Shown here in pieces: positions 1 to 17,921 of a stretch of DNA of 20,539 nt (position 1 is the stretch's first letter; every line of letters begins with the position of its first letter). The position numbers and the translations under genes are program-made. Below the pieces are notes generated by a model. The model searched no databases. It was not told where the DNA came from and saw nothing but the letters and a program-made list of their open reading frames with translations. This DNA is from a virus, in the IMG/VR virus record IMGVR_UViG_3300036651_001490, positions 1 through 20,539 of that record; one strand, 5' to 3'.

Positions 1-388
1 GTTGCGACCACAGCGCGAGCCCGCTGGCGTGGATCTCTAACGCGGCGGCGTCGGTGTCGCGGGGCGGCCAGTCGTCGCTCCAAACCATCGGGACGCAGTC
101 GGCGAGGGTCGCGGTCGCCACGATGCACCCGAGCGGCGCGGGTGCCTGCCGGAAGGTCGGCGCGTCCTGCTCGACGATGATCCCCTCGTCGACGTCCCAT
201 TGCCACCACCAGCCGGTGCCGTATTCCTCGCCTGGTGTCGGCCTGCGTGCCGCGGCGTGGATGCCGATGCGCTGACCGATCAGCGACTTCGGCGCAGGCC
301 AGGACCGCGTCTCGATCGTCTTGACGCCGAGCGCGCACAGCGACGCCCACGGCTGCCACAGCGTCAACATCGGCAGGCCACCACTCAC
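1..388 (-). CDS. ASCH-domain protein (3' end cut by window edge)
   Basis: The frame is open from a GTG at 388 to the window edge, giving 129 residues without a stop. Residues 8-29 carry the N-terminal ASCH signature (LTLWQPWASLCALGVKTIET, then RSW), followed by GIHAAAR and a later CIVATATLADC strand, as in the ASCH/PUA-like fold. ASCH proteins bind RNA or modified nucleosides, and some are small amidohydrolases acting on acetylcytidine; which activity applies here cannot be read from the sequence. The GTG start is chosen because it overlaps the methyltransferase stop (GTGA) and has a strong GGAGGT Shine-Dalgarno 6 nt upstream. An internal ATG at 370 is the alternative. Placement directly after a cytosine methyltransferase suggests a role with modified bases, but that is inference. 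Confidence 0.85.
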   Translation of the reverse strand, partial: MSGGLPMLTLWQPWASLCALGVKTIETRSWPAPKSLIGQRIGIHAAARRPTPGEEYGTGWWWQWDVDEGIIVEQDAPTFRQAPAPLGCIVATATLADCVPMVWSDDWPPRDTDAAALEIHASGLALWSQ

Positions 389-1455
389 CGGGTCACCTCC
401 ACGGGGCGGTTGGCGCGGGTTAGGGCTTCTACGAGCGGCGGCGGGCAAGCGTTTCCAATTTGGCTGCAAACGCTGGTTTTGGTGCCGCGCCACCGGTAGT
501 CGGGCGGGAAGGCTTGGAGTGCGGCGAGCTCGTGGACCTCGAGCCGCACCGCGTTCTTCATCTGTGAGCCGGACTCGTTCGGGTCGTGGCGGCCGGGCGC
601 CATGATCCGTGGGTCGCACGCGACGGTCGTCGCTGGCCGCTCGAGGAACCATTGCCCACCGGACTTCGCGGTAAGCGCTGGTGCTGGCTCGTCTACCGGG
701 CGGGTTTGGGTGGTGCCGTCTTCGCGTTGGTCGCGGTTCGTGTGCAACGTCCACCCGTAGCCCTTGAGCCGCGGGATCGCGTCGGCCATCGGCACCCATC
801 GCTGCGTGAACAAACCCGCGTGTTCGGTGTGCGTCGGCGCCGGCCACACAATCCGGCCGCCGTCACGTCGCGCGATGATGATGGTGCGTTCCCGGTTCTG
901 CGGGACGCCCTGGTCTGCACAATCCAGTATCCGCCATTGGACGTCGTAGCCGAGGATGCGGAGCCGTCGCAGGATCGACCCGAAGTAGGCGTCATGCTTG
1001 GCGAACGTGAGCCCTTTGACGTTCTCGGTGATCACCACCGGCGGCAGCAGCTCCTTCACGGCGGCGAGGAGCCAGGGGAATCCGTCGCGGTCGTCGAACT
1101 CGCCTTCCTGGTCGCCGGCAGCGGAGAACGGCTGACACGGCGGCGACGCCCACATGAGCCACGGGAGAGACAGGGGCGCCCAGTCCTGGGCGGCCGGGTG
1201 CGACAGTTCACCGAGGCTCGCCGCTGCGTCCAGCGGGTCGGAGCCGACGGTGGCCGCACGCCCCTGCTCGATCAAGGTACCCAACGTCGACCAGTCGAAC
1301 GTCGACAGATCCACACGTAGCACCGGCCGCTCGTGGTTCGCGTCGTGCGTGTCCGCGGCGTCCGCCCACTTCTCGAGTGCGACAACGTCGTAGCCAGCGT
1401 CACGCAAACCGCATGACGCGCCACCCGCACCCGAGAACGCATCCACAGCCATCAC
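385..1455 (-). CDS. C5-cytosine DNA methyltransferase (Dcm family)
   Basis: The 356-residue protein would transfer a methyl group from SAM to cytosine C5. Motifs appear in order: motif I DAFSGAGGAS (5-14); motif IV SPPCQPFS (104-111) with catalytic Cys107; motif VI ENVKG (144-148); motif VIII QNRER (186-190); and motifs IX/X in the last 60 residues (LQAFPPDY, SQIGNACPPPL). The length is that of a normal single-domain enzyme. The roughly 80-residue stretch between motifs VIII and IX should hold target recognition. No cognate restriction nuclease is seen, so it is probably a solitary phage methylase, usually anti-restriction. The GTG at 1455 is immediately followed by an ATG at 1452; the GTG overlaps the upstream stop by 4 nt. 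Target sequence is unknown. Confidence 0.95.
   Translation of the reverse strand: MMAVDAFSGAGGASCGLRDAGYDVVALEKWADAADTHDANHERPVLRVDLSTFDWSTLGTLIEQGRAATVGSDPLDAAASLGELSHPAAQDWAPLSLPWLMWASPPCQPFSAAGDQEGEFDDRDGFPWLLAAVKELLPPVVITENVKGLTFAKHDAYFGSILRRLRILGYDVQWRILDCADQGVPQNRERTIIIARRDGGRIVWPAPTHTEHAGLFTQRWVPMADAIPRLKGYGWTLHTNRDQREDGTTQTRPVDEPAPALTAKSGGQWFLERPATTVACDPRIMAPGRHDPNESGSQMKNAVRLEVHELAALQAFPPDYRWRGTKTSVCSQIGNACPPPLVEALTRANRPVEVTR
395..400 (-). promoter_or_regulatory. Shine-Dalgarno deciding the ASCH gene start
   Basis: On the minus strand GGAGGT is followed by a 6-nt spacer and then GTG (388). It is among the strongest ribosome binding sites in the window. It lies inside the last codons of the methyltransferase gene and supports the GTG over the ATG at 370. 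Confidence 0.7.
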
Positions 1456-4323: not shown

Positions 4324-4694
4324 CGGGACCTGCCGTAGACGCCGTGGCCGGCCTGGTCGGCCACGAGTTTCACCAACGACTGCGCCCCGGACAGCTGCCC
4401 GAGGACCAACTCCTTCTTCGCTTGGAACGTCTTCACGTCCGCTCGGGCCAACAGGAGGTCGTTGAGCTCGTTGATCGCCTCGTACTCGGCGAGTTTCTCG
4501 GCGGTGCGTTCAGCGGTCTTGTCTGAGCCCATGCGGCGGCGTTGGAACGCGGCGCCGGACTTGCGTTTGTAGGCGACTTCGGCGGCGGCTTCGGTGTGGA
4601 GCGCGGTGGCGAGGTCGGCGATGAGGGTGTCCATCTGCTGGGTGGCGTGGACGATGACGCGTTCGACGTCATGCGGGGAGACGGGGTCGCTCAC
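4320..4694 (-). CDS. hypothetical coiled-coil protein next to RecT, 124 aa
   Basis: The protein is largely helical and charged. Its first helix (HDVERVIVHATQQMDTLIADLATALH) is followed by a basic patch (AYKRKSGAAFQRRRMGSDKT) and a second long helix (KTAERTAEKLAEYEAINELNDLLLARAD) with coiled-coil character. GTG at 4694 overlaps the RecT stop (GTGA), and its TGA overlaps the 52-aa gene ATG. The position immediately downstream of RecT suggests an accessory recombination or DNA-binding factor, by association only. I know of no enzymatic motif here. Confidence 0.75.
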   Translation of the reverse strand: MSDPVSPHDVERVIVHATQQMDTLIADLATALHTEAAAEVAYKRKSGAAFQRRRMGSDKTAERTAEKLAEYEAINELNDLLLARADVKTFQAKKELVLGQLSGAQSLVKLVADQAGHGVYGRSR

Positions 4695-5782
4695 GAGGTG
4701 CCGCGTGCCGTGTCCATCGCGTCGGCTAGGGGCCCGAGCGCAGTTTTCGATTTGCCGGTGGGTGCTTTCACGCCGAATAGGTCGGCGAGGGCCTGTAACT
4801 GCGGGGCCGAGCAGGTGGCGAGGTAGTCGGCCGAGGCGACGTCGTCGGGGAGGGCTTCCCATGTGTCGCCCGCGTCGTCGCCGGACGGCGCGGGCGGAGA
4901 CGCCGTAACGGCGTCACTGACGCCCGCCGCTGCCTCACGGTCAGCGGCGTCTCCGCCCGTCACCTCTTGGAGTTCGGGCACGTCGATCGCGTCGTCGTAG
5001 TCCCGTTCCTCGTCGAGCGTGTCGACGCTGTAGTCGGTGCGGACCGTCTCGTCCCGGTTGAAGGCTTGGGCCATCTCCGTCGACAGCGGCAGGTATGGGG
5101 CCATCGCCCGGATCACGGTCTTGCGGGCCATCGCGTCGAAGTCGTCGTGCCACGGCCCGGACGGCTTGTCGGGGTTGTACGACTTCGACCGGTCCCGAAT
5201 CCGGGTGATGTCTTCCATCGGCATGACGAGGAAGTAGAAGCCGCCGTCGTGGAAGTGCGCGACGCCGTACGACGCGACGGCTTGGCCGCGGTCCCGTAAC
5301 GTCGGCGTGTGCCGCAAGACCGGGGAGAGGCCGTAGCTGTACTCGAAGTCGTCGTGCTCGAACACGGTGCGCGCTTCGATCGACTTGATGTTTCCTGACC
5401 GGCGGGCCAGCTCGAGGATCCCCTTGTAGCCGATGACGAACTGGGCTTCGTTCCACTTGCGCCACTCGCCGTCGACCTTCGCGTTGCGTGTGAACGGGAC
5501 GAGGTAGGCGTGGCCGAGGGGGCCGAGTTCCAACCCGAGTTGTGCGCACGTCATGAGTGCGCCGAGGAGTGATTCCTGGGTGCACGCGGCGAGTTTCGGG
5601 TTGGTGCGGATCGTCGTCAACGCGAGACGGGCGAGCCGGTCCGGTGTCATGTTCGCCGCGGCCGGCAGGGCGCGTTGCAACTGCGGGGTCTGCTCCTCGA
5701 TGAGTTGCATGATCGTCTTGCGTTTCGGGGCGCCGTCGGGGTTGGCGCGTTCGATCGCTTGGCTCAAGCGTTCAGTGCTCAC
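4691..5782 (-). CDS. recT: RecT-family single-strand annealing protein
   Basis: This 363-residue RecT/Red-beta-type annealase pairs complementary single strands generated by the partner exonuclease. The RecT core spans about residues 22-270. Recognisable blocks are TIMQLIEEQTPQLQRALP; the segment ALTTIRTNPKLAACTQESLLGA; LGLELGPLGHAYLVPF; QFVIGYKGILELARRSG; and the C-terminal AMARKTVIRAMAPYLPLS. After about 275 the chain becomes acidic and Ala/Pro-rich, then ends in a short helical SAP-like segment (YLATCSAPQLQALADLFGV), an unusually long tail for RecT. GTG at 5782 is chosen because it overlaps the preceding stop (GTGA); farther upstream sequence in frame is shadow of the previous two genes. 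One small zinc-ribbon gene separates it from the exonuclease. Confidence 0.95.
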   Translation of the reverse strand: MSTERLSQAIERANPDGAPKRKTIMQLIEEQTPQLQRALPAAANMTPDRLARLALTTIRTNPKLAACTQESLLGALMTCAQLGLELGPLGHAYLVPFTRNAKVDGEWRKWNEAQFVIGYKGILELARRSGNIKSIEARTVFEHDDFEYSYGLSPVLRHTPTLRDRGQAVASYGVAHFHDGGFYFLVMPMEDITRIRDRSKSYNPDKPSGPWHDDFDAMARKTVIRAMAPYLPLSTEMAQAFNRDETVRTDYSVDTLDEERDYDDAIDVPELQEVTGGDAADREAAAGVSDAVTASPPAPSGDDAGDTWEALPDDVASADYLATCSAPQLQALADLFGVKAPTGKSKTALGPLADAMDTARGTS

Positions 5783-6021
5783 GACTTGATGCCGATCCAA
5801 TGGTTCGTGTCGGCAAGGCAGGCGGGGCAAAGGTCGGCGGTGACGACCATGTTCGACATGCGGCCGAACTCGTACGGGAACGTCTCCACCCGGCCCCATC
5901 CGACCCAGCACGTCGGCCCCTGCACCGGTGTCCCGTCGTCGACGATGACCTGCTCGTCGTGCGTGTCGCAGCGGTCGCAGCGGATCGACACGGTGTAGGT
6001 GTGGGTGTTGGCTTGCATCAC
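5779..6021 (-). CDS. zinc-ribbon protein between exonuclease and RecT, 80 aa
   Basis: Two cysteine knuckles, CDRC (residues 15-18) and CPAC near the C-terminus (LCPACLADTNHW), flank a beta-rich middle (VIVDDGTPV, GRVETFPYEF). That is a knuckle-strands-knuckle layout typical of zinc beta-ribbons. The start is GTGATG at 6021/6018; the GTG overlaps the exonuclease stop by 4 nt. Its stop overlaps the RecT GTG, so all three should be made together. The consistent location between a nuclease and its annealase hints at a coupling factor, but no biochemical role can be read from the sequence. Confidence 0.75.
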   Translation of the reverse strand: MMQANTHTYTVSIRCDRCDTHDEQVIVDDGTPVQGPTCWVGWGRVETFPYEFGRMSNMVVTADLCPACLADTNHWIGIKS

Positions 6022-6989
6022 TCGCCGCCTTTGAGGATGCGCAGCGGCCGCACCAGCGACGTGGCGGTGAACTCGGCGGCGATGTGGGGGTGGGCTTTGC
6101 GGAGGGCGTCGACGTCGAGGCGGGCCTGGGTGTGCGCCTTGTATCCGAGGATCGGCGCACCGTTGTAGGTGGCTTGTTCGTTACGGCCGATCGCGGCCCG
6201 CAGCCGGTTCGCCAACGCCTTCACGCGTGTCCCGATGAGGGATTCCTCAGCCTTCGCGGCGATGTACTCGTGGTACACGTCGTGCAACTGGTCGTCGAAC
6301 TCGACTGCGGTGTCGTCGATGTGGGCCGGGTACAGGGCGTTCAGGGCGTCGGTCGTCGATTGGGACGCGTCGGCGGCGGGCATGATGCCGGCGTCGACGT
6401 AGCCGAACCAGAACCGTTTCTCCTGGTCGACGATCGTGGCGATGAGGTCGGCGTCGCGTTCGATGTAGACGTGGCGGAACGTGTTCCCGCCGATGAGCGC
6501 GGCGAGGTATGCGTAGTCGAGGCCGGTGACGGCGAGGTAGTGCATGGTTTGGGCGAGGGCCCGGTTGGGGACGTCGCCGTCTTTCCAGTCCTTCGCCAGC
6601 CACGCTGATGTGGTTTTCAGTTCGAGGACGCCGACACGGCCGTCGTGGTCGGTGACGAACCGGTCGGGGGTGGCGAGCATGAATGGCCACGCGCGGGACC
6701 GGTACAGCATCCGCGGGTCGGTGACGGTGAGGCCGGTGCGTTCCGCGAATTCGGCGGCGACGACCGATTCGAGCTTGCGGCCGAAGCGCATTGCTTCGGT
6801 TTCTTCGACGAGGGAGAGGCCTTCGGCCTTGTCGAGGTAGACGGCGAGGCGGGATTTCATCGGGTCGGCGCCGAGGACGGCGAGGCAGTCGGAGCCGGTG
6901 ATGCCGGCGCGGCGTGCCTCGAGCCAGGTGGTTTCGTCGGCTTCGTCGAGGGTGAGGATGGTTTCGGCGGCGGGGAGCGTGTCGATCAT
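6018..6989 (-). CDS. YqaJ-type (lambda Exo-like) recombination exonuclease
   Basis: This 323-residue PD-(D/E)XK exonuclease would chew 5' ends to give 3' single strands for RecT. Family blocks are present in order: WLEARRAGITGSDCLAVLG (22-40); MRFGRKLESVVAAEF (67-81) with E74; FMLATPDRF (103-111) with D109; and GVLELKTT (120-127) with E123 and K125 forming the catalytic triad. AQTMHYLAVTG (146-156) supplies the conserved Gln/Tyr helix. The C-terminal 100 residues are helical with a LDVDALRKAHP segment. ATG at 6989 overlaps the preceding stop (ATGA). The in-frame extension to 7364 is rejected because it runs through the regulator gene and the promoter region. Confidence 0.93.
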   Translation of the reverse strand: MIDTLPAAETILTLDEADETTWLEARRAGITGSDCLAVLGADPMKSRLAVYLDKAEGLSLVEETEAMRFGRKLESVVAAEFAERTGLTVTDPRMLYRSRAWPFMLATPDRFVTDHDGRVGVLELKTTSAWLAKDWKDGDVPNRALAQTMHYLAVTGLDYAYLAALIGGNTFRHVYIERDADLIATIVDQEKRFWFGYVDAGIMPAADASQSTTDALNALYPAHIDDTAVEFDDQLHDVYHEYIAAKAEESLIGTRVKALANRLRAAIGRNEQATYNGAPILGYKAHTQARLDVDALRKAHPHIAAEFTATSLVRPLRILKGGE

Positions 6990-7261
6990 GCGACCGACCC
7001 CATCTCGGTCAGGTACTTGATCGTCCGTTCGATGTGGAGGTTCGCTTCCTCGATTTCGTGGTCGCGGTGCGCGATGAGGCCGTCGATGATCGACCGGGCG
7101 GCGTAGAGGCGGCGGGGGCGGTGCGTGTTGCCGCTTTCGAAGACGGGGGTGAACCAGCCGTCGCGGCACCAGAGCGCGAAGCGGTTTCTTGACATGCCGG
7201 CGGCGGCGGCGGCGTCGTCGACGGAGAGGATGAGTTGCGGGGCGGTGTCGTGGTCGGCCAT
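6986..7261 (-). CDS. small helix-turn-helix regulator / excisionase-like protein, 91 aa
   Basis: This is the first gene of the leftward early operon. Residues 11-60 read as a MerR/excisionase-type winged helix: LSVDDAAAAAGMSRNRF..WCRDGW, then a wing and RRLYAARSIIDGLIAHR. A C-terminal helix (DHEIEEANLHIERTIKYL) may dimerise. It is divergent from the repressor, the place expected for Cro or Xis; I cannot tell which. The ATG at 7261 is preferred to a GTG at 7291, although neither has a Shine-Dalgarno. A good minus-strand -35/-10 pair predicts a transcript starting at or next to that ATG, so translation would be leaderless; the GTG codon lies inside the promoter. Confidence 0.8.
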   Translation of the reverse strand: MADHDTAPQLILSVDDAAAAAGMSRNRFALWCRDGWFTPVFESGNTHRPRRLYAARSIIDGLIAHRDHEIEEANLHIERTIKYLTEMGSVA

Positions 7262-7298
7262 AGCGGTGAGTATGACGGGGAACCCCGGCACGAGTCAA
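7262..7298 (-). promoter_or_regulatory. leftward early promoter, apparently leaderless
   Basis: On the minus strand, TTGACT (7298-7293) is followed by an 18-nt spacer and CATACT (7274-7269), then 7 nt to the ATG at 7261. The predicted start of transcription (7262 or 7261) falls on the start codon. The spacer holds the inverted repeat CGGGG-AA-CCCCG (plus-strand 7276-7287), a plausible operator that would block polymerase. Confidence 0.6.
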
Positions 7299-7458
7299 GA
7301 ATCTAGGGGTGTGGATATCATCTTGGCAGATGTCCGCCTGACGAGGGTCAGCTAGACTGTCCACAGAGGCCGTCTTGATTTACACAGCCTGTGCACGTAT
7401 TGTCATGGAGACGGGCGGAAGTAACCTCCGTAGGGACTAGAGCAAGCGAGGCAGGAAC
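7299..7458. promoter_or_regulatory. divergent control region with inverted repeats
   Basis: No gene is visible here. The region separates the early operon from the repressor. Beyond the two promoters it contains three short inverted repeats: CTGAC-N4-GTCAG (7338-7351), CTGT-CC-ACAG (7357-7366) and CACAG-C-CTGTG (7383-7393). The last two share CACAG/CTGTG-type half-sites and are the best candidates for operator sites of the repressor or the opposing regulator. Confidence 0.5.
7375..7410 (+). promoter_or_regulatory. rightward promoter for repressor-integrase
   Basis: TTGATT (7375-7380), a 17-nt spacer and TATTGT (7398-7403) give a good sigma70-type promoter with a predicted start near 7410, leaving a leader of about 49 nt before the repressor ATG. 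The spacer contains CACAGCCTGTG, an inverted repeat that could allow autoregulation. Confidence 0.6.
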
Positions 7459-7848
7459 ATGGGACCGAAAACGACACCAGACCGCACGAGAGGGCTTGAA
7501 GATGTGATCGCATCACGGCTCCTCGGCGACGTCCCCCGCGTCACCAGCACCATCGGACAGCGGATGCGCCGGGCCCGCACAGCGTCCGGCATCGCGCGCC
7601 AGGAAGACATGGCCGACGTGCTACGGGTCACCCGCCAGACGGTGATGAACTGGGAAGGCGACGACCCCCACCCCTCCCGAGCCGTCCTCATCGCGTGGGC
7701 CGTCATCACCGACTGCAACTTCGTGTGGCTCGAAACCGGCGTCGGCGAACCCGCCACACAGAACGACGGGGCGTTTCAATCACTTGAACGATCACCCATT
7801 CGGCGGATGCGTTGCTTCACGACGCGCTCGGAGCTCGGCGTCGCGTGA
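7459..7848 (+). CDS. XRE-family immunity repressor, 129 aa
   Basis: Residues 32-92 form a Cro/CI-type helix-turn-helix: IGQRMRRARTASGI, RQEDMADVLRVTRQTVMNWEGD with the recognition helix at about 57-66, and a closing FVWLETGVGEP. It should bind operators in the divergent region and shut off the early operon. No dimerisation or LexA-type peptidase domain follows. Instead there is a basic, unstructured tail of about 30 residues (99-129) ending RSELGVA, whose last residues resemble small-nonpolar ssrA-like degrons. The ATG at 7459 is preceded by GCAGGA. The stop overlaps the integrase GTG (GTGA). The tail and overlap recall integration-dependent immunity repressors of mycobacteriophages such as BPs. 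Confidence 0.85.
   Translation: MGPKTTPDRTRGLEDVIASRLLGDVPRVTSTIGQRMRRARTASGIARQEDMADVLRVTRQTVMNWEGDDPHPSRAVLIAWAVITDCNFVWLETGVGEPATQNDGAFQSLERSPIRRMRCFTTRSELGVA
7775..7788 (+). repeat. inverted repeat TTCAA-TCAC-TTGAA in repressor tail (candidate att core)
   Basis: Perfect 5-bp arms separated by 4 bp lie in an AT-richer patch of the repressor 3' region, just before the integrase. Tyrosine recombinase core sites have imperfect inverted arms around a short overlap, so this is a candidate crossover site. No bacterial attB is available for comparison, so the assignment is weak. Confidence 0.25.
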
Positions 7849-8807
7849 ACACGCTCGTCGCCCGGAGTGAAATGCCGCAGCATGCGCAGCATTTGCAGAC
7901 ACAACTGACAGGTGCCACGTTGGCTGTGTCTACGACCGGGGGGGTCGACGTGCGTGCGGAAGTGGAACGGTACGTAGCCGAGAAAGTAGCCCTAGGGGAT
8001 TACAGCCCCCAGTCGGCGGTCCAAGTCGCGTCGGTCCTCCGCCGCTTCTCCGTCGGCGTCGGCGACATACACCCCGGCGAACTCACCCGCAGCCACATCA
8101 CCGCCTACCTCGCGTCGCAGACCGGGAACGCACGCACGCAACGGAACCGCCTCTCCGCGATCCGCACGTTCACCGCGTGGTGCCACGCGAACGACATCAT
8201 CGGCAAAGATCCCGCGGCGGCGATGAAATCGACGAAAGTCCCCGTCGGCGAATCCCGGTTCCTCGAGCCGGACGAGGTCACCCTCGTCCTCGCCGAGGCG
8301 AAGTCGCCGCGGGATCGGCTGTTGATCCTGCTGCTGGTCCAGATGGGTTTGCGGCGCGGCGAGGCCGCCGATATCGACATCGAAGACATCGACTTCGCGG
8401 AACGCCTCCTCGCGGTGCACGGCAAAGGGTACCGGGGCGCGGTGTCACGGGTGGTGTCGATCCCGGTGCAGGCGTTCGAAGCGTTGCGGGCGTTCCTCCA
8501 CGCGGAGCCGGTGTTCTCCGGGCCGCTGCTGCGCAACTACCGAGGGGGACGCATCTCCCGCAACAAGGTGTCGCAGATCGTCGCCGCCGCGATGTACGAC
8601 GCCGGGGTGAAGGCCAGCCCGTACGACGGCCGTTCCGCGCACGCGCTCCGGCACACGATGGTTCAGCACCTCGTCGATGCCGGCAAAGAGCTCCGCGACA
8701 TCCAAGCGTTCGCGGGGCATGCGTCGATCCAGACGACCGAGTTGTACGCCCGCCGCAAGATCGCGGTCGACAAGCTCCGCGCTGCGTCCGAGGGCCGCAC
8801 CTACTAG
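7845..8807 (+). CDS. int: tyrosine recombinase (phage integrase)
   Basis: This 320-residue integrase would catalyse attP x attB recombination. An N-terminal SAM-like core-binding domain (about 37-125, EVERYVAEKVALGDYSPQS... to HANDIIGKDP) precedes the catalytic domain. Catalytic residues are all present: Arg170 in MGLRRGE, Lys194 in HGKGYRG, His266 and Arg269 in HALRH, His292 in AGHASIQTT, and nucleophile Tyr301 in LYARR. It looks intact. There is no long arm-binding N-terminal domain, so arm-type sites may be simple. The GTG at 7845 is chosen for its 4-nt overlap with the repressor. ATG at 7872 has a GGAG 4 nt upstream and is a real alternative. The gene should be co-transcribed with the repressor. 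Confidence 0.93.
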   Translation: MNTLVARSEMPQHAQHLQTQLTGATLAVSTTGGVDVRAEVERYVAEKVALGDYSPQSAVQVASVLRRFSVGVGDIHPGELTRSHITAYLASQTGNARTQRNRLSAIRTFTAWCHANDIIGKDPAAAMKSTKVPVGESRFLEPDEVTLVLAEAKSPRDRLLILLLVQMGLRRGEAADIDIEDIDFAERLLAVHGKGYRGAVSRVVSIPVQAFEALRAFLHAEPVFSGPLLRNYRGGRISRNKVSQIVAAAMYDAGVKASPYDGRSAHALRHTMVQHLVDAGKELRDIQAFAGHASIQTTELYARRKIAVDKLRAASEGRTY

Positions 8808-8811
8808 AAGG

Positions 8812-8843
8812 GCGGTGGCCCCGCATGGGAACAGGGCCACCGC
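8812..8843. terminator. hairpin between convergent transcription units
   Basis: GCGGTGGCCC (8812-8821) and GGGCCACCGC (8834-8843) make a perfect 10-bp, very GC-rich stem with a 12-nt loop, 5 bp after the integrase stop. The leftward lysis genes end at 8863, so the hairpin could stop transcription from both sides. There is no clear T-run, which is common for terminators of high-GC bacteria. Confidence 0.65.
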
Positions 8844-8862
8844 AGACCCGACGGTAGCAGCC

Positions 8863-8952
8863 TCAGTGCGCGAGGTAGGCGATCACCGCCAACGTGACGG
8901 CGCCCAACGCGATACAGGCCAACAGATCGACGACTTCGTAAAACCGTTTCAC
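8863..8952 (-). CDS. 29-aa single-pass membrane protein, candidate lysis accessory
   Basis: The frame begins GTG at 8952 and encodes MKRFYEVVDLLACIALG, then a continuing hydrophobic stretch ending AYLAH. The layout is a short charged N-terminus followed by one transmembrane helix of about 20 residues. It lies directly downstream of the endolysin in the same direction, 36 nt after its stop, with GAGG upstream at slightly long spacing. Small membrane proteins in this place are often holins or holin partners. A single helix of this size is shorter than known holins, so a regulatory or antiholin-like role is equally possible. No other holin candidate is visible in the window. Very short, hence the limited confidence. 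Confidence 0.55.
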   Translation of the reverse strand: MKRFYEVVDLLACIALGAVTLAVIAYLAH

Positions 8953-8964
8953 GAAGCGAATCCT

Positions 8965-8988
8965 CGGCCGATGTACGCCCGATGTCAA
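8965..8988 (-). promoter_or_regulatory. possible -35 element after the endolysin stop
   Basis: A perfect TTGACA occurs on the minus strand immediately after the endolysin TAG. The best -10 at suitable spacing (GAGGAT, 17-nt spacer) is poor. It might drive the 29-aa membrane protein gene separately, but could be chance. Confidence 0.25.
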
Positions 8989-9795
8989 CTACGCGCTGCG
9001 GGGCCCGTTGTATGTCGGGTCGTACGCGGGGGCGGGGCCGATGAGGGCGAACGAGTCGATCGTCGCCCGATGCAGCCGGATCGGTGTGCCATCAAGGGCC
9101 GCTTTCGCGAGGCCGGTGTCGCGGAGTTGCGCGAGGGCGTTGCCGTCGCGGACCCATGATTTGATGACGCCGTCGGTGAGGAACACGGCGACGTCGCCGT
9201 CGTCTGCTTGCACGAGTGTCGCCACGTCGTCGTTCTCCTTGGTTTGGGCAGCGAGTCCTTCGCTGTGGGTTTGCACGAGGGCGATGTACCAGTCGATCGG
9301 GAAGTCGGGCCCGGGGTCGGTATGCCCATCGTTCGCCGGCCACGCAATGTTGACTTGGCGGTGGGTGGTGATCCCCCGGGCCCCGCCGCGGAGGTCGGCG
9401 GCGGCGAGGTACTGTTTGGGGATTTTGTACCGGTCGCACCATTCGGCGACGAGCCCGGCGGAGATGGTGAGCATCGCGGTGCCGTAGTCGTCGAGCCATT
9501 CGCCCATTGTTTGTGACGCGTAGCCGGCGTGTTCGATGTGGAGGCCGTTGTGGTTCGCGGACGGGGCGCCGTACGCGATGTCTTGGTCTTGGACGCAGCG
9601 GACAGCGGTGTCGGAGTCGACGCAGATGTGCGCGGAAGCGACACGGGCGCCGGTTTGGAAGATGGTCGCGCAGTCTTCGGCGGCGGTGCCTTTCTCGGGG
9701 TATTCCATGTCGTGGAGGACGACGAGGTCGATTTGGCGGCCGGTGGTCCGGGTGAACCAGCGGGCGGGGACGAAGGGCAGGTCGTCGATCATCAT
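8989..9795 (-). CDS. endolysin: N-acetylmuramoyl-L-alanine amidase
   Basis: Residues 20-172 form an Amidase_2/PGRP-type domain that would cut the lactyl-L-Ala bond of peptidoglycan. The first zinc ligand is H28 in LVVLHDMEYP; GLHIEHAGYA (84-93) is the conserved Glu strand; THRQ (H145) and GHTDPGPDFP (D160) supply the remaining ligands in the usual 'HR...DPGP.FP..W' form. A C-terminal region of about 95 residues (ENDDVATLVQADDGDVAVFLTD...) should be a wall-binding or accessory domain that I do not recognise. The start is the ATG at 9795 in the ATGA overlap with the fibre gene; a second ATG follows at once. There is no signal peptide, so it needs a holin. Confidence 0.9.
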   Translation of the reverse strand: MMIDDLPFVPARWFTRTTGRQIDLVVLHDMEYPEKGTAAEDCATIFQTGARVASAHICVDSDTAVRCVQDQDIAYGAPSANHNGLHIEHAGYASQTMGEWLDDYGTAMLTISAGLVAEWCDRYKIPKQYLAAADLRGGARGITTHRQVNIAWPANDGHTDPGPDFPIDWYIALVQTHSEGLAAQTKENDDVATLVQADDGDVAVFLTDGVIKSWVRDGNALAQLRDTGLAKAALDGTPIRLHRATIDSFALIGPAPAYDPTYNGPRSA

Positions 9796-10663: not shown

Positions 10664-11476
10664 TCAGGTTTTGATGAACACGTTGGCGACCCCGAACGGG
10701 GGCATGTTGTTGTGCGCCGCACCGCCGCCAGCCGAGCCGGTCGCGATACCGGTGGCGGTGTTGCCGGTGAGTACGGCCATATTGTTCGCACCGGCGGCAC
10801 CGCCGGTCGTCGAGGTCGTGTCTTGGGTACCGTGCGCGTGGCCCGGCATCTCGGTCGACGTGAGGAGGTGGGTTTCTTCGCCGCCGGTAGTGCCAGTCGA
10901 CCGGATGGTCAACCCCGGCCCGGTACCGGCGCCGACGATGACACGCCCCCGGTAGTCGGGGACGTTGAACGTCGTCGACCCGTCACCGACACCGAACACG
11001 GTCGAGATCGCCGCGAACAACGTCGCGTACGTTGTCCGCGAAACCGCCGAACCGTCACACACCAACCACCCGGACGAAGGCGACGTCTTAGCCGTGATCT
11101 TCAAGTCGCCGGCCTCGAACTGCTGCGCCACCTCGAGCTTTGCCTGGGTGACGTTCGCGTCCGCCAACTTCGCGGTGGTGATCCCGGCGTCTTTGACGCG
11201 CAACCACCCGCCGCCAACTTCGATCGTCACACCATCGGCAGCGGTCGCGGCGAAGTCGGCGCCGGTGATGGTCCCGTCGAGGATGTTGGCCGATTCGACC
11301 GCGTTGATCGCGAGTTTCACATGGGTAACCGCGCCGTCCGCGAGGTCCGACGTGGCGATCGGGTTGGCTTTCTTCCGGTACTGGGCGTGGTCGTCGCGGG
11401 ACGTGTCGTCGCGGTGCTGATACAACGCCGACTGGTCGCCCTGCGCCGCCGCCGCCGGGGTCCAATCCGTTGCCAT
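10664..11476 (-). CDS. tail fibre with phage tail collar domain, 270 aa
   Basis: Residues 42-115 are pseudo-repeats (DLADGAVTHVKLAINAVESANILDGTITGADF and DAGITTAKLADANVTQAKL) typical of trimeric fibre shafts. Residues 121-183 match the Tail_Collar domain: GDLKITAKTSPSSGWLVCDG, then STTFNVPDYRGRVIVGAG. A Gly/Thr-rich loop region with EMPGHAH and the C-terminal HNNMPPFGVANVFIKT complete the standard collar-fibre form. The N-terminus (ALYQHRDDTSRDDHAQYRK) probably anchors it to the tail. The ATG at 11476 shares one base with the stop of the previous gene (TGATG), with GGTGG upstream. The inferred role is receptor binding at the tail tip, alongside the C1q-like fibre. Confidence 0.88.
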   Translation of the reverse strand: MATDWTPAAAAQGDQSALYQHRDDTSRDDHAQYRKKANPIATSDLADGAVTHVKLAINAVESANILDGTITGADFAATAADGVTIEVGGGWLRVKDAGITTAKLADANVTQAKLEVAQQFEAGDLKITAKTSPSSGWLVCDGSAVSRTTYATLFAAISTVFGVGDGSTTFNVPDYRGRVIVGAGTGPGLTIRSTGTTGGEETHLLTSTEMPGHAHGTQDTTSTTGGAAGANNMAVLTGNTATGIATGSAGGGAAHNNMPPFGVANVFIKT

Positions 11477-13275
11477 CAGAACACCACCTTCAATTGGCAG
11501 ATCATCGTCCCGTTCCACGCCTTCTGCGTCTTGCACGGCGTCACCGGCCGCCACGCGAAATCGTCGACCTTCACCGTGTACGACAAGGCGCCGATCTGGA
11601 ACGTCGTGATCGTCTGGTCGGCGGCGAGGGAACGGATCTCGGCGATGACGGCGTTGACGTCCATCGGTTCCTGCGACCCCGCGATCCCCGCCGTGATCTG
11701 TTCGGTCAACACGAGCGGCACGGTGATCAACTCGGTGCGCACCGGCGCCGGGTAGGCGTACAGCGTCGCCGCGCGCACCGTCGGCCCGGTCGTCGCATCC
11801 AGGCCCGACCGGTTCAGGGTGAGGCGGTGTTCGTGGTAGGTGCCTTTGCGGGTTTCGCCGGTGATGTTGATCTGTGTGAACGCCCCGCCTTGCGTGGCGA
11901 CAGCCATCGTGACCGTCCCGGGGTCGGACCAGTCGGGGCGGCCGCCGATCACCGTTTTGTTCTCGCCGATGTTGAAGTTGATGACCCCCGAATCCAACGT
12001 CCCCGACGCCACGAGATTCGCCGTGGGCTGGTAGATGCCGACGGCGGTGACACCGACCGCGAGGGTCGACCCGAGGAACTGCACACCGTCCACGACTCCC
12101 GAACCGGTGACCATCAGATCGGACGCGTAGGCGGGGACGTACGGCTCGGTGAAGTTCTGCAAATCCATGCGGCCGACCCCGGTCGACGCCGCGTCGTAGT
12201 TCGACCAGCCGAACCACACGTACTGCCCGCGGCCGCAGAACGCCCCGACCGTCACCCCCAAATCAACCACCGGGCCGTACGTCAGATCCCCGGACCCGGC
12301 TTGCGTCGCGACCCGGAACCCACGCGACGTGCCGATCACGATCACACCGGAGTACCCGTAGATCGCGGCGACGGTTTCGCCGTCGGGAAGGCGCGCGGCG
12401 ATGACCGGGACGTCGAGGCCGGTGCCGTCGGACTTCACGGCAAGGCGGTAGACGATGCCCTTGTCGCCGATGTTTCCCGCCGCGTACGCGTGACTGGTCC
12501 CCTCCGCGAACGCCACCCAACTGAACGCTGTGTCAAGGTTCGCCGGGGTGACGACTACCGCCGTCCCGGTCGAGATGTCCCGCAGCGCGGAACCGGACGC
12601 GGACAGGAGCCGCCCCTTCACGAACCCGACCAGCGACGTCGTCGACGCTTCGAACGACGTGAACGCCGTCCCGGTCGCCTTGTACACCCCCGACGCCCCG
12701 AACGCGGCGTAGATCGTCCCACCGGTCGACGCCAACGCTGTGACCGCCGCCGCCGGGGTCCCGGTGCACGCCGTCTTCGTCGTCAGGTCGGTCTGGTAGA
12801 CGGTTTGCAGGTCGGTGTAATACAGTTTCGTCCCCGTAGATACGATCTTCGCGGTGGTCCCCGTGTTCGCCACGGTGTGCGCCACCGCGGTGTCCGCGAG
12901 CAACGTGAGTTGGCTGCGCGTCCACGGGTTCACCCCTTTACTTGACCGGAACCGGTGACCGTCGGAGTCCTTCAAGTCACGGTGGATCTGCCCGGCACCC
13001 AAGTGCCACGACGACGTCGACCGCCGCCACGCAGCCTCCGGGTTCAACGTCTGCTCCCCCGGCTCCGCCGAGTCGACGGTCTGCCCCTTCGTCATCGTGA
13101 CCGTCTTGTGGGTGAACTTGTCGATGTAGTAGCCGCCCTCGAGGTCGAGGACGTACCCGCGGCCCGCCAACGCGACGTCGAACTTCCCCGGGACCGTCGA
13201 CGTGTTCGCGGCGACGCCGGAGTAGAACGACTCGGTGAACGTCCCGCCGATCGCGAGGGTGTACGGGACGGTCAT
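11476..13275 (-). CDS. large beta-rich virion protein (minor tail-like), 599 aa
   Basis: The sequence is almost wholly beta strands and turns. The first 120 residues hold a tyrosine-rich sheet (GRGYVLDLEGGYYIDKFTH). From about 130 to 450 there are repeated blocks of roughly 40-50 residues with patterns such as GTKLYYTDLQTVYQT, GGTIYAAFGASGVYKATG, GKGRLLSASGSALRDIS and SGVIVIGTSRGFRVAT, which read like beta-propeller blades. The last 150 residues are another sheet domain ending MICQLKVVF. I recognise no named family. Position between the adaptor-like protein and the fibres suggests a tail or tail-tip protein. The ATG at 13275 overlaps the preceding stop (ATGA). An in-frame extension to 13296 overlaps the neighbour more and is not needed. 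Confidence 0.75.
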   Translation of the reverse strand: MTVPYTLAIGGTFTESFYSGVAANTSTVPGKFDVALAGRGYVLDLEGGYYIDKFTHKTVTMTKGQTVDSAEPGEQTLNPEAAWRRSTSSWHLGAGQIHRDLKDSDGHRFRSSKGVNPWTRSQLTLLADTAVAHTVANTGTTAKIVSTGTKLYYTDLQTVYQTDLTTKTACTGTPAAAVTALASTGGTIYAAFGASGVYKATGTAFTSFEASTTSLVGFVKGRLLSASGSALRDISTGTAVVVTPANLDTAFSWVAFAEGTSHAYAAGNIGDKGIVYRLAVKSDGTGLDVPVIAARLPDGETVAAIYGYSGVIVIGTSRGFRVATQAGSGDLTYGPVVDLGVTVGAFCGRGQYVWFGWSNYDAASTGVGRMDLQNFTEPYVPAYASDLMVTGSGVVDGVQFLGSTLAVGVTAVGIYQPTANLVASGTLDSGVINFNIGENKTVIGGRPDWSDPGTVTMAVATQGGAFTQINITGETRKGTYHEHRLTLNRSGLDATTGPTVRAATLYAYPAPVRTELITVPLVLTEQITAGIAGSQEPMDVNAVIAEIRSLAADQTITTFQIGALSYTVKVDDFAWRPVTPCKTQKAWNGTMICQLKVVF

Positions 13276-14165
13276 CGCGGGTTCCTCTGCGGCCAATCCA
13301 CCAGCAACCGTCGCCGTTCAGCGGCCAGGCGGGCTTGGTAGTTCCGGATGATCGGCGTGATCGACTGCGCCTCCGCCCCGGTGGGGACTTCGGCGGCGCG
13401 GCGGGTGTTGCCTTGCGCTTCGTGGAAGTTCCGTCCGAGTTCGCGGCCGACGGTCAACCCGATCCCTGTCCCCATCGCCAGCACGTCGATCGTCGAGCCG
13501 GGGATGCCGGTGACGGTTTCGACGACCTGCGTCACGTCGCTGGTGCCGAGAAGCGTGAACGGCGCCTTGTAGTCGATGCGGATCGTCCGGCCTTCTACCA
13601 TGCCGGACCCGCGGAAGAAGATCCCGGTGCCCGACGGGAACACGGTGGCGTCCTCGTCGCGGCGGACCGTCCATCCCGACACGTCGACCCATTCGCGCAT
13701 CGCATAGTCCTGGGCCTGCACCGAATACACGGCCCCCGGCGTCGCGGCGAAGTCGTAGCCGATGTACGCCGACGTCCATGTGATTGATTTGGTGGTCATC
13801 TGGAACAGGCCGTGGCCGTAGAGGTTGTCGAGCTCGGAGTTGATGGCACGGAGGATCTGTGCGTCGGTCCACCGGGCGGCGACTCTGACGATCTCTGTCG
13901 TGGTGTGTGACACGGCGACGGTGCCGTCGACGCCGCGGTCGACGGACGCAGCTTTCGGGGTGGCGTCGGTCGACCATACGTAGATGTCTTCGAGGCCGAT
14001 CGACAGCCGTGTGTTCGGTTGCATGGCGCCGAGGTCGTAGGTGAATGTGAGGGCCGTCTGTACGTTGTCGATCGCGGCGGAGAGTTTGTTGCGGGGTTCG
14101 ACGACGCCTTGGCCGAGGTAGTCGCGGCGGATCCGGTCTATGAGTTGCTGGACCGTGGTCGTCAC
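13272..14165 (-). CDS. virion adaptor/neck-like protein, 297 aa
   Basis: The N-terminus is helical (VQQLIDRIRRDYLG). A beta module (about 20-95) ends in the motif RGVDGTVAVSH, followed by a helix with RWTDAQILRAINSELDNLYG, then a beta-sandwich region (WTSAYIGYDF, AREWVD-type strands, RTIRIDYKAPF). The C-terminus is a long basic helix (IIRNYQARLAAERRRLLVDWPQR). The 'RG..GT.A..H' element with a following 'I..aiN..l' helix occurs in phage head-tail adaptor or neck-type proteins, so I call it adaptor-like. That family call is from memory of pattern only. GTG at 14165 overlaps the preceding stop (GTGA). Confidence 0.65.
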   Translation of the reverse strand: MTTTVQQLIDRIRRDYLGQGVVEPRNKLSAAIDNVQTALTFTYDLGAMQPNTRLSIGLEDIYVWSTDATPKAASVDRGVDGTVAVSHTTTEIVRVAARWTDAQILRAINSELDNLYGHGLFQMTTKSITWTSAYIGYDFAATPGAVYSVQAQDYAMREWVDVSGWTVRRDEDATVFPSGTGIFFRGSGMVEGRTIRIDYKAPFTLLGTSDVTQVVETVTGIPGSTIDVLAMGTGIGLTVGRELGRNFHEAQGNTRRAAEVPTGAEAQSITPIIRNYQARLAAERRRLLVDWPQRNPR

Positions 14166-14482: not shown

Positions 14483-15256
14483 CTACGGGTAGCCGGCGAC
14501 GGTGTAGCCGGCGGATGTGAGGGCAGCTGCGGTGGTTTGGTCGATGGTGTAGGTGTGGCCGCCGAGGTACACCTCGGTGGCGGTGGCGAGGTCGTCGGTG
14601 GTGGGGGCTTCGTGGTTGACGTAGACGCCGCCGGTTTTGAGGACGGTGACGCCGCGGGTGAGTTCTTCGTTGAAGCGGACGAGGCGGCGGGCGACTCGTT
14701 CGACCCCCTGCCGGTGATACTCACGGTTGATGACGTCCGCGGCGCCTTGCGTGGTCGGCGGGGTGAAGGCGTATACCGGGGCCGCGACCAGACCTGCCGC
14801 GGCCGCGGCCGCGTTAGCGAGGACCGCGGCGCCGGCCGCGTTCGCACCCACCCCGACGACGGCACCCGACCGGAAGTCGCGGAGCGTGATCGCCGCGGTC
14901 GCGAACGTCCCCGCCGTCCCCGCCGCCGCCGCGGTGAGATTGCCGAGGACGACCGCAGCGGTGAACGACACGCCCACCCCGACCGTCGCCGCCGACACCG
15001 CATCCGCGAGGACGACGACCCCGGCCGCGTTGACGACCGTCGCCGCCGACTCCGCGAGGAGCCACGTCCCGTCCTCCAACAGAAGGTCGTCACCGTCTTG
15101 GACCAACACCGCGTCGGACACGACCGACTCGACGAGTAGCCGGTAGCCGTCCTCCAACCACATCGACGCCTGGTCCTCTTGGGACAGGGCGTCCGTCGCG
15201 ACGCCGTCCTCGAGGAGGAGCATCCCGCCGGCTTCGAGCGCGAGGCGATCAGGCAA
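14483..15256 (-). CDS. virion protein with LLLEDG repeats and paralogous C-terminal domain, 257 aa
   Basis: Residues 1-70 contain repeated acidic-hydrophobic elements (GGMLLLEDG, MWLEDGYRLLVES, LLLEDGTWLLAES). Residues 75-160 are Ala/Val/Gly-rich low-complexity repeats. Residues 161-257 form a distinct domain (AFTPP, INREYHRQGVERVARRL, GGVYVNHEAPTTDDLATATEVY). That domain is clearly related to the C-terminus of the gene at 19477-20364. The role is probably a tail or decoration protein; I do not recognise a family. The TTG at 15256 gives an 8-nt overlap with the tailspike gene and has AGGGG upstream. The ATG at residue 12 (15223) is a possible later start. Confidence 0.7.
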   Translation of the reverse strand: MPDRLALEAGGMLLLEDGVATDALSQEDQASMWLEDGYRLLVESVVSDAVLVQDGDDLLLEDGTWLLAESAATVVNAAGVVVLADAVSAATVGVGVSFTAAVVLGNLTAAAAGTAGTFATAAITLRDFRSGAVVGVGANAAGAAVLANAAAAAAGLVAAPVYAFTPPTTQGAADVINREYHRQGVERVARRLVRFNEELTRGVTVLKTGGVYVNHEAPTTDDLATATEVYLGGHTYTIDQTTAAALTSAGYTVAGYP

Positions 15257-17921
15257 GCTTCAACGCCCCTCTCGTGCGTGTCCCCGAGGTGGCGACGAGG
15301 GTGGTCTGGTCGAACACGGCGAGTTCCTGTAGGACGGTCCGTTGGCCGACGGTGACGCCCCACAGGGTTTGGTGGGCGAGCGCGGTTTCGTATCCGCCGT
15401 ATGACGGCGCCCGGAGCACGAGGCGGACTTTGGAGAACGACGTCCGCACGAACGACGCGACATGCACCCACCGGTCATCCCAATACGTTTCGAGGGTGCA
15501 CCGTTCGAGCGAGGTGAACGGGAACGTCAGCGACGCGGGCGGGGTCTGTGTGTACCGGTTTGTCCACGCCGCCCCGTCCCAGGTGTCGAGGTCGAAGTCG
15601 ACGGGGGTGGAGTGGCCTTGCCACGGTGAGAAGCCCCATAGGACGATCCGGGTCGCGGCGATGTTCGCGCCGAGGTCGACGGTGATCGTCTGCGGGTAGG
15701 TGGCGGCGGTGTCGGAGTACGGGGCGGTCGAATCGGCGAGGTTCGACGACGAGTAGCCGTACTCGTTTTCGAGGGTGCCGGACACGATCCGGGCGATGTT
15801 CGCCGCGGCCCCGGTCGTCGACGCCGTCGCGGTGGTGGACAGGATCGGCGCGGATAGCGGTTTGTTGACGGTGACGGTGACGTTCGTCGGGATCCGCACC
15901 CACGTCGGGAATTCCATGACGGGGAGGGTCGCGGCGCCCGCGTTGACGGTGGCAGTGAACGTGTTCCCCCACGAGTCCGAGCACACCAGGCTCGACGCGC
16001 CCGCCACCGTCAACGTCAACGCGGGTAGACCGGACGCGGCGCCGATCACGCCGAGTGTCTTGGTGCCGTCCGACGGGTGATTCCAGAGGCCCCCGGCGTA
16101 GATTTTGTTGCCGTAGTTCCCGAAGTCGACGCCGCCGTCGAACGCGGCGAGGGTCCGGTTGCCGATCTCCGCGACCATCGTGCGGATGGGGAGCGCTTGC
16201 GGTCCGGGGCCGACGCCGGAGATCCAGAACATGGGGAACTGGTCGAACCCGCCGTCGACGTCGTACCAGTAGTGGTTGTTCTCCACCGGGATGCCGTAGA
16301 GCTCTTGCACGAAGATTTGCAACGCGGTCCACCGGGCCGCGTACCGCGGGTAGGTGAGCCCGTCGTAGGAGAACCCGAAGCCCTGCTCGGTCTGGTAGAT
16401 GGGCAGGTTCGGGTAGCCGGCAATCGCGAGGACGTTGCGCAGCGACGACATCGTCGAGCGTGCCAGTTGCAGGTCGCCGTTGGAGCAGTTGTAGCCGTGG
16501 ACGGAGACGCCGTCGAGGTAGGCGCCGCCGCCGGCCGCGAAGAAGTCGGTGAGCCACTGTGTGCCCGACGAGTTGAACGACACGGGGTTCGGGCCGAGGA
16601 CTTTGGCGTTGGTGTCGGCGGCTTTGACCGCGTTGTAGAACGCCTGCTGTTCGGTGACGAACGTCGCCGCGGCGGTGCCTTGCGGTTCGTTGCGCGGTTC
16701 CCACGCCGTGACCTGGCCCTTGAGGTAGTTGACGGTCGCGGTGACATTCGTCGGGGTGGCGGTGCCGTTGGGGAAGGCGCCGATCTGGCGGCGCGGCCGC
16801 GACGGCCACGCCAAGTCGGCCCACTCGGCCTTGAGGGCTGTTGCGGCTGCCAACTCCGCCGTGTACGCCCCGGCGGGGGCGGCGGACCCGGAACCGAGGT
16901 TGAATCGTTGCGGACCGAGCGCCATCACCGCCCGGGCGTGCTCATCGACGAACGACACCCCCGCGGTGGCGTACTCGGCGCCCTTGTTCGCCGGGAAGTT
17001 CACGTCGCCGCGCACCCGGTAGAAGGTGCAGTCACCGTACGCGGTGCCCCACTGGCCGTCGCCATGGTCGGGCCCGGTGAGATACACCCGGTACCAGCCG
17101 TACGGGCCGCGGCCGGAGCGTTGCGTCAACGCCGAGTCGGCGACGTCGACCGTGTCGGAGGTGACCGACCCGGAGGTGACGATGGCGCCGTCCCAGTTCC
17201 GCACCGAATACGCAGTCGCGGCCGGGTTCGACGCTGCCGCCATCGACCACGACGAGAACCGGGCCGCCGCGTCCCCGGAGACGTACAGGCCGTGCGTGTT
17301 CCCTGTCGCGTTCGCGGCGGTGGTGAACGTCCCCTCGACGCTGCCGTTGAGGTACACGGTGTAGTTGTTCCCGACGCATGTGACGCGGAGGAGGTAGTAG
17401 GTGCCGGCGGTGAGGACGGTGGACCCGGTGAACGGGAACGTCGGCGTCGACGCCTGGATCGTCGAGGCGCCGACACGGAGTGACGTGCCGTCGAGGAAGA
17501 CGTTGTTGTGGTCGTTCCCTGATGTGCGCAACGTGAGCCCGACCTGTCCGGTCGACGAGGCGCCGAGTTTGACGCGGGTGGTGATGTCGAAATCGGTGCG
17601 GCCCATGCCGCCGCCGTTCCCGTTGGCTTGCAGGTAGATCGCACCGGTCCCCCCCGGGCAGTACCCCTCGCCGTTGAGCGTCCCGAACACGGACTGGAAC
17701 TGCGACCACCGGAACCCCGGCACCACCAACGCCGGTGACGCGTTCACGAGGGAACTCGTTGAGTCCCCACGCGAGAAGTCCTCAACCACGGGGCCGCCGC
17801 TGTACGCCAAACGAAGCCGCACATTCGATGAGACACGGTCGGCGTCGAACACGAAACCCGAACGCGTCAACGTCGACGGGATCACCGCATCCGCCGGCCG
17901 GGTGTAGGAATGAAAACCCAT
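15249..17921 (-). CDS. tailspike with clan GH-A-like glycosidase domain, 890 aa
   Basis: Four regions can be seen. Residues 1-45 are a short virion-anchor-like start. Residues 46-230 are a ConA/LamG-like sheet (DHNNVFLDGTSLRVG, YYLLRVTCVGNNYTVYLNG). Residues about 300-625 resemble a clan GH-A TIM barrel: VTAWEPRNEPQG has N411-E412, the expected acid/base on strand 4; DGVSVHGYN has H475; PIYQTEQGFG has E512, the expected nucleophile on strand 7. Residues 708-870 look like an F5/8 type C (galactose-binding) domain: NEYGYSSSNLADSTAP, then PQTITVDLG. GH39 or GH5-like enzymes are the nearest match I can name. It probably cuts a host-surface polysaccharide. ATG at 17921 lies 1 nt after the preceding stop, without a good Shine-Dalgarno. 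Confidence 0.85.
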   Translation of the reverse strand: MGFHSYTRPADAVIPSTLTRSGFVFDADRVSSNVRLRLAYSGGPVVEDFSRGDSTSSLVNASPALVVPGFRWSQFQSVFGTLNGEGYCPGGTGAIYLQANGNGGGMGRTDFDITTRVKLGASSTGQVGLTLRTSGNDHNNVFLDGTSLRVGASTIQASTPTFPFTGSTVLTAGTYYLLRVTCVGNNYTVYLNGSVEGTFTTAANATGNTHGLYVSGDAAARFSSWSMAAASNPAATAYSVRNWDGAIVTSGSVTSDTVDVADSALTQRSGRGPYGWYRVYLTGPDHGDGQWGTAYGDCTFYRVRGDVNFPANKGAEYATAGVSFVDEHARAVMALGPQRFNLGSGSAAPAGAYTAELAAATALKAEWADLAWPSRPRRQIGAFPNGTATPTNVTATVNYLKGQVTAWEPRNEPQGTAAATFVTEQQAFYNAVKAADTNAKVLGPNPVSFNSSGTQWLTDFFAAGGGAYLDGVSVHGYNCSNGDLQLARSTMSSLRNVLAIAGYPNLPIYQTEQGFGFSYDGLTYPRYAARWTALQIFVQELYGIPVENNHYWYDVDGGFDQFPMFWISGVGPGPQALPIRTMVAEIGNRTLAAFDGGVDFGNYGNKIYAGGLWNHPSDGTKTLGVIGAASGLPALTLTVAGASSLVCSDSWGNTFTATVNAGAATLPVMEFPTWVRIPTNVTVTVNKPLSAPILSTTATASTTGAAANIARIVSGTLENEYGYSSSNLADSTAPYSDTAATYPQTITVDLGANIAATRIVLWGFSPWQGHSTPVDFDLDTWDGAAWTNRYTQTPPASLTFPFTSLERCTLETYWDDRWVHVASFVRTSFSKVRLVLRAPSYGGYETALAHQTLWGVTVGQRTVLQELAVFDQTTLVATSGTRTRGALKLA

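What the first reader, a model, noticed from the sequence alone, without database searches (positions are those of the whole stretch)
7459..8807. Possible integration-dependent immunity switch (repressor overlapping integrase, degron-like tail)
Seen: a repressor with a complete HTH but no second domain has a basic 30-residue tail ending RSELGVA. Its stop overlaps the integrase start, both are read from one promoter, and a Cro/Xis-like gene is divergent. Known: in mycobacteriophages BPs, Brujita and Charlie, attP lies inside the repressor 3' end, the viral repressor carries an ssrA-like tag and is unstable, and integration removes the tag. Inferred: the same logic here, with crossover in roughly 7750-7845. 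If the phage is not close to those clusters, this would be an independent example.
Basis: partly seen in the sequence, partly recalled or inferred. Interest (0 to 1): 0.8.

Follow-up and report, generated by a model that had tools for sequence, protein, structure and literature searches.

The report
Phage repressor–integrase lysogeny switch
A phage gene pair (repressor followed by integrase) looks like a distant relative of a known switch in which inserting into the host chromosome trims and activates the repressor, but the piece that would prove it, an attachment site inside the repressor, could not be found.

Summary
The genes are as described: a 129-residue HTH repressor (7459-7848), followed on the same strand by a tyrosine integrase. 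The repressor belongs to PHROG 2328, the family that holds the integration-dependent immunity (IDI) repressors of Mycobacterium clusters P, I and G and of Gordonia phages. In 23 of 26 relatives examined, a tRNA T-arm lies in the repressor 3' end, directly after the conserved part. In four of five bacterial genomes the prophage repressor runs into an intact tRNA gene. So IDI is this family's normal behaviour, and the window would not be an independent invention. The window itself has no tRNA core. Its tail gave only chance matches in 396 Actinomycetota genomes, while a known IDI phage's tail found its site in 101 of them. Integrase and repressor lack -AA degron ends. IDI with non-tRNA attB sites and untagged proteins is published for M. 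abscessus prophages (MabC/N/O/H). MabN phage phiT45-1, with a 129-aa repressor of the same family and an 18-bp non-tRNA core, is the best parallel. I favour an IDI switch of that kind (about 0.55). Conventional immunity with attP elsewhere, or a decayed core, is not excluded. Integration, truncation and degradation were not shown.

The parts
7459..7848 (+). Immunity repressor, 129 aa, HTH domain at residues ~29-98, PHROG 2328 (family of IDI repressors)
7771..7848 (+). Non-conserved, predicted disordered tail of the repressor (residues 105-129, AFQSLERSPIRRMRCFTTRSELGVA); the place where relatives carry their att core; no tRNA core here
7774..7792 (+). Imperfect palindrome CGTTTCAATCACTTGAACG, one of three candidate core-type sites (not significant by itself)
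   Evidence: sequence; no exact match in IMG/VR
7870..7894 (+). 9-7-9 inverted repeat AAATGCCGC-AGCATGC-GCAGCATTT, alternative core-type candidate inside the integrase 5' end; 9 such repeats occur in the whole window, so chance is likely
7845..8807 (+). Tyrosine integrase (XerC/D-like; PF00589 7e-25); start GTG 7845, ATG 7872 or GTG 7950; C-terminus EGRTY without degron
7292..7458 (.). Intergenic control region between repressor and divergent gene: candidate repressor promoter 7376-7403 and palindromes 7357-7366 and 7383-7393 (inferred operators)
   Evidence: reading of sequence
6986..7291 (-). Divergent 101-aa gene, first gene of the leftward early operon (position of Cro/Xis in relatives; identity unverified)
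8812..8843 (.). Perfect 10-bp inverted repeat (GCGGTGGCCC/GGGCCACCGC) directly after the integrase, likely transcription terminator

Best explanation
Lysogeny module of an actinobacterial temperate phage, most likely an integration-dependent immunity switch of the untagged, non-tRNA kind. Repressor and integrase are read in one direction from the 7292-7458 control region. The DNA-binding part of the repressor ends near residue 100, and a disordered tail of about 25 residues follows. [quoted passage not shown] The viral form would be unstable or inactive through a signal in the tail, and the trimmed form would hold lysogeny. Shown: gene order, repressor family, position and disorder of the tail, absence of a tRNA core. 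Not shown: attP, attB, truncation, instability.
For: Repressor best matches PHROG 2328 (65 bits, next 37), which is also the best family of known IDI repressors Fishburne, Bakery, Typha and phiT45-1 and of prophage repressors. Relatives have a tRNA T-arm in the repressor 3' end right after the conserved 'WLETG...DG' part: 23 of 26 distinct ones examined. In four bacterial genomes the prophage repressor ends inside an intact opposite-strand tRNA gene, that is at an att junction. In seven IMG/VR records the contig ends within about 70 nt of that T-arm, as expected for provirus ends. The window's similarity to the family stops at residue ~105, exactly there, and the remainder is predicted disordered. 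Repressor-integrase overlap like that in Bakery and Hope. Non-tRNA, untagged IDI is published (PMC8092301). The MabN pair phiT45-1/prophiGD53-3 shows it: 129-aa PHROG 2328 repressor, 18-bp non-tRNA core inside it, no -AA ends. A control shows that such a core is invisible to the genome search (0 of 396), so the window's negative result is what this model predicts.
Against: No attP or attB identified by any search. No prophage form found. C-terminus LGVA is not a standard tag, and the integrase has none. The integrase is not placed in the clade of known IDI integrases (12 rows, support 91/93) and lies unresolved near XerC. Candidate palindromes are not above chance.
Confidence: 0.55

Rival explanations
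1. Ordinary immunity: the full 129-aa repressor is the active form, attP lies outside the repressor gene (for example in the 7845-7960 stretch before the integrase core-binding domain, or near the integrase end), and integration does not change the repressor.
For: No att core or degron found in the tail. Integrase is XerC-like and outside the known IDI clade. ATG 7872 or GTG 7950 as integrase start would leave a short repressor-integrase gap holding the 7870-7894 inverted repeat.
Against: Almost all relatives of this repressor have the att site in the gene. No attB match for 7270-7480 or 8780-9010 either. The 9-7-9 repeat occurs nine times in the window, so it is not distinctive.
Confidence: 0.27
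2. Decayed or displaced IDI: an ancestral tRNA core in the repressor tail has mutated beyond recognition or was replaced by recombination, and the phage now integrates poorly, elsewhere, or in a host whose site is not sampled.
For: A degenerate tRNA-Lys-like core does occur in a relative (L039: alignment score 67.5 against 35.7 +/- 4.2 for shuffles). Gordonia phages with IDI features but no identifiable attP are reported (Nyceirae, Bowser; PMC5559632).
Against: The window tail is no more like tRNA-Lys than shuffled sequence (40.0 against 38.4 +/- 4.8). The frame is open to a stop that overlaps a possible integrase start, and the integrase catalytic residues look intact.
Confidence: 0.13

Closest known systems
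M. abscessus MabN prophages (phiT45-1, prophiGD53-3; attB-13), PMC8092301
   Same: PHROG 2328 repressor of 129 aa directly followed by a tyrosine integrase; basic tail with no -AA end; untagged integrase; core inside the repressor is not tRNA-derived (18 bp AGTTCTTACTCACGAGTA)
   Different: Only low sequence identity (integrase 31%); its att site is known, the window's is not; the integrases are not sisters in the tree
IDI cassettes of Mycobacterium clusters P, I and G (Fishburne, Brujita, Hope/BPs)
   Same: Repressor family (31-35% identity for Fishburne and Brujita), gene order, tail in the same place, overlap with integrase in Hope
   Different: They have a tRNA T-arm core in the repressor; Fishburne and Brujita have -AA on repressor and integrase (Hope ends KAS/AGF); the window has neither core nor -AA
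Gordonia IDI phages (Emperor, SallySpecial, Wizard/Bakery; also UmaThurman, Obliviate)
   Same: Best integrase BLAST matches (31-33%), WLETG repressor motif, ATGA/GTGA repressor-integrase overlap in Bakery
   Different: tRNA attB core and -AA tags present; integrases form a clade that excludes the window
Gordonia phage Nyceirae
   Same: Same repressor family with no tRNA core in the tail and no identifiable attP
   Different: Repressor ends -TAA and integrase ends -LAA (putative tags); repressor and integrase are about 300 nt apart

Membership tests
Integration-dependent immunity (Broussard et al. 2013 kind) | Repressor and integrase co-directional and adjacent | tested here: met
   7459-7848 and 7845/7872-8807 on the + strand
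Integration-dependent immunity (Broussard et al. 2013 kind) | Repressor homologous to known IDI repressors (not strictly required) | tested here: met
   PHROG 2328 E 1e-17; shared with Fishburne, Bakery, Typha, phiT45-1
Integration-dependent immunity (Broussard et al. 2013 kind) | attP common core inside the repressor ORF | tested here: inconclusive
   No tRNA core (with control 71); a short non-tRNA core cannot be seen without the host (control)
Integration-dependent immunity (Broussard et al. 2013 kind) | Prophage form of the repressor is truncated | not testable with these tools
   No prophage of this phage found; shown only for relatives L040-L043
Integration-dependent immunity (Broussard et al. 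2013 kind) | Viral repressor destabilised by a C-terminal signal | tested here: inconclusive
   Tail disordered and ends LGVA, not -AA; published IDI members without the tag exist
Classical tRNA-attB subtype of IDI (BPs, Brujita, cluster P) | attP core equals a host tRNA 3' end | tested here: not met
   positive control 101 of 396 genomes
Classical tRNA-attB subtype of IDI (BPs, Brujita, cluster P) | -AA (ssrA-like) end on integrase | tested here: not met
   Integrase ends SEGRTY
Clade of known IDI integrases | Window integrase nested within it | tested here: not met
   12-row clade 91/93 without the window; window unresolved with XerC, Maja and L057

The most novel reading that the evidence does not exclude
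An integration-dependent immunity switch assembled independently on the integrase side: an IDI-family repressor joined to a XerC/D-like integrase outside the known IDI integrase clade, using a non-tRNA attB and a new, non-ssrA C-terminal instability signal.
Probability: 0.15. Interest if true: 0.55.

Novelty: new member of a known kind. Interest (0 to 1): 0.33.

Why it matters
It extends the probable range of integration-dependent immunity to an uncultured phage with no close relatives in the collections searched. It also adds a candidate for the poorly studied untagged, non-tRNA subtype, whose instability signal is unknown. The survey around it shows that PHROG 2328 repressors sit at tRNA att junctions in Propionibacteriaceae, Marmoricola, Pseudoclavibacter and Dietzia genomes as well, so a repressor of this family next to an integrase is a usable marker for the switch.

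Tried and rejected
tRNA core in the tail: rejected (ARAGORN; T-arm pattern; Rfam with Brujita as control, where a T-arm match appears; tRNA-Lys alignment; genome search). The eight weak genome hits were checked: they lie inside long ORFs of unrelated genes in 66-73% GC genomes, so chance. Palindromes as core sites: not distinctive, and no exact copy of two 20-mers in IMG/VR. Integrase BLAST hits as proof of IDI: dropped after the tree, since XerC proteins are as near. Close relatives by protein in IMG/VR and in 84,980 genomes: none; one weak repressor match (L002). Phages sharing the 606-aa tail protein (L015-L031) carry no such integrase. attP in 8780-9010 or 7270-7480: no support. The original 2013 paper is not in the library, so details of BPs come from PMC4557955 and PMC9262239.

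Full report
What is there. The window is a 20,539-base IMG/VR virus record. ORF 7459-7848 encodes a 129-residue protein with one HTH domain (PF07022, PHROG 2328 E 1e-17). The frame ending at 8807 encodes a tyrosine integrase (PF00589 E 7e-25). GTGA at 7845-7848 allows a 4-base overlap, but ATG 7872 has a better-placed GGAG, so the overlap is possible rather than shown. A 15-sequence AlphaFold model gives helices 32-93 at pLDDT above 90 and a disordered tail at 104-128.

Repressor family. The top PHROG is 2328, far ahead of the next (65 against 37 bits). It is also the top family for repressors of Fishburne (cluster P), Bakery and Typha, for phiT45-1 and for three prophage repressors in bacterial genomes. 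tblastn hits among phages are almost all annotated immunity repressors of Mycobacterium and Gordonia phages.

Where relatives keep their att site. In phages Fishburne, Brujita, Emperor, SallySpecial, Bakery, Bipper, Hope, Typha and Paito the repressor 3' end contains the reverse complement of a tRNA T-arm (GGGATTCGAACCC or close), right after a conserved W-L-E-T-G...D-G stretch. Hope's record annotates AttP there. A scan of bacterial genomes with a three-repressor alignment gave five loci. In four of them (Marmoricola, Pseudoclavibacter, Dietzia, a Propionibacteriaceae MAG) the repressor ORF runs into a complete tRNA-Lys, -Thr, -Lys or -Asn gene on the other strand, which is the expected attL-type junction of an integrated IDI prophage. 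The fifth, L039, has a degenerate tRNA-Lys-like core. In IMG/VR, ten further relatives show the T-arm, and seven of those records end within about 70 nt of it. In all, 23 of 26 distinct relatives have the T-arm. The exceptions are L039, phiT45-1 (IDI with a non-tRNA core) and Nyceirae (no attP known; PMC5559632).

The window differs. Its similarity to the family stops at residue ~105, exactly where relatives begin their core, but the following 78 bases are not tRNA-like by pattern, ARAGORN, Rfam or alignment. DNA 7740-7960 against 396 Actinomycetota genomes gave eight weak, scattered hits in unrelated genes. The same search with Bakery's tail hit 101 of 396 genomes, best 39 bases at 97%. So a tRNA attB is excluded as far as this sample allows. 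The same search with phiT45-1, a real IDI phage with a non-tRNA site, hit 0 of 396, so the negative result says nothing against a short non-tRNA attB. Segments 8780-9010 and 7270-7480 gave one weak and no match in 178 genomes.

Known precedent. PMC8092301 reports that M. abscessus clusters MabC, MabN, MabO and MabH use integration-dependent immunity without ssrA-like tags on repressor or integrase, that four of the six attB sites used by IDI prophages are not tRNA genes, that non-tRNA cores are 3-25 bp, and that prophage repressors are 20-35 residues shorter. I checked the MabN pair here: phiT45-1's 129-aa repressor ends RRIRIT, its integrase ends DGTVT, and prophiGD53-3's two ends share AGTTCTTACTCACGAGTA, which lies inside the phiT45-1 repressor. 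The window, with LGVA and EGRTY ends, resembles this subtype more than BPs or Brujita.

Integrase. Best BLAST hits are IDI phages, but NCBIfam puts XerC first, Actinomycetota XerC proteins score as well, and the tree leaves the window outside a 12-member IDI clade with 91/93 support, its position unresolved. The integrase therefore does not prove membership.

Verdict. Works like: probably integration-dependent immunity of the untagged, non-tRNA kind (0.55). Member of the classical tRNA subtype: no, since tested features are not met. Novelty is modest: a new, divergent candidate member of a known kind. The decisive feature, attP within the repressor, remains unproven.

Noticed in passing
L040:5962-6308, L041:5935-6334, L042:2872-3211, L043:2421-2575: Prophage repressors of this family end inside intact tRNA genes in Marmoricola, Pseudoclavibacter, Dietzia and a Propionibacteriaceae MAG: apparently unannotated integration-dependent immunity prophages outside Mycobacterium and Gordonia.
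   Followed up: partly
L039:6210-6290: Propionibacterium MAG repressor with a degenerate tRNA-Lys-like core (score 67.5, shuffles 35.7 +/- 4.2): possibly a decayed att site frozen in the repressor tail.
   Followed up: partly
window 15249-17921 (-): 890-aa probable tail or fibre protein with a weak glycosyl hydrolase catalytic-core match (PF11790, below cut-off) and a galactose-binding-like stretch.
   Followed up: no
window 4691-7001 (-): RecE-like exonuclease and RecT annealing protein genes next to the immunity region, as in Brujita and other IDI phages.
   Followed up: no
window 385-1455 (-): C5 cytosine DNA methyltransferase in the early region.
   Followed up: no
   Followed up: no
window 11476-13296 (-): 606-aa protein with 29-40% relatives in 17 IMG/VR contigs and in Streptomyces phages (Immanuel3 group), but those contigs lack this integrase: the lysogeny module is mosaic.
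   Followed up: partly
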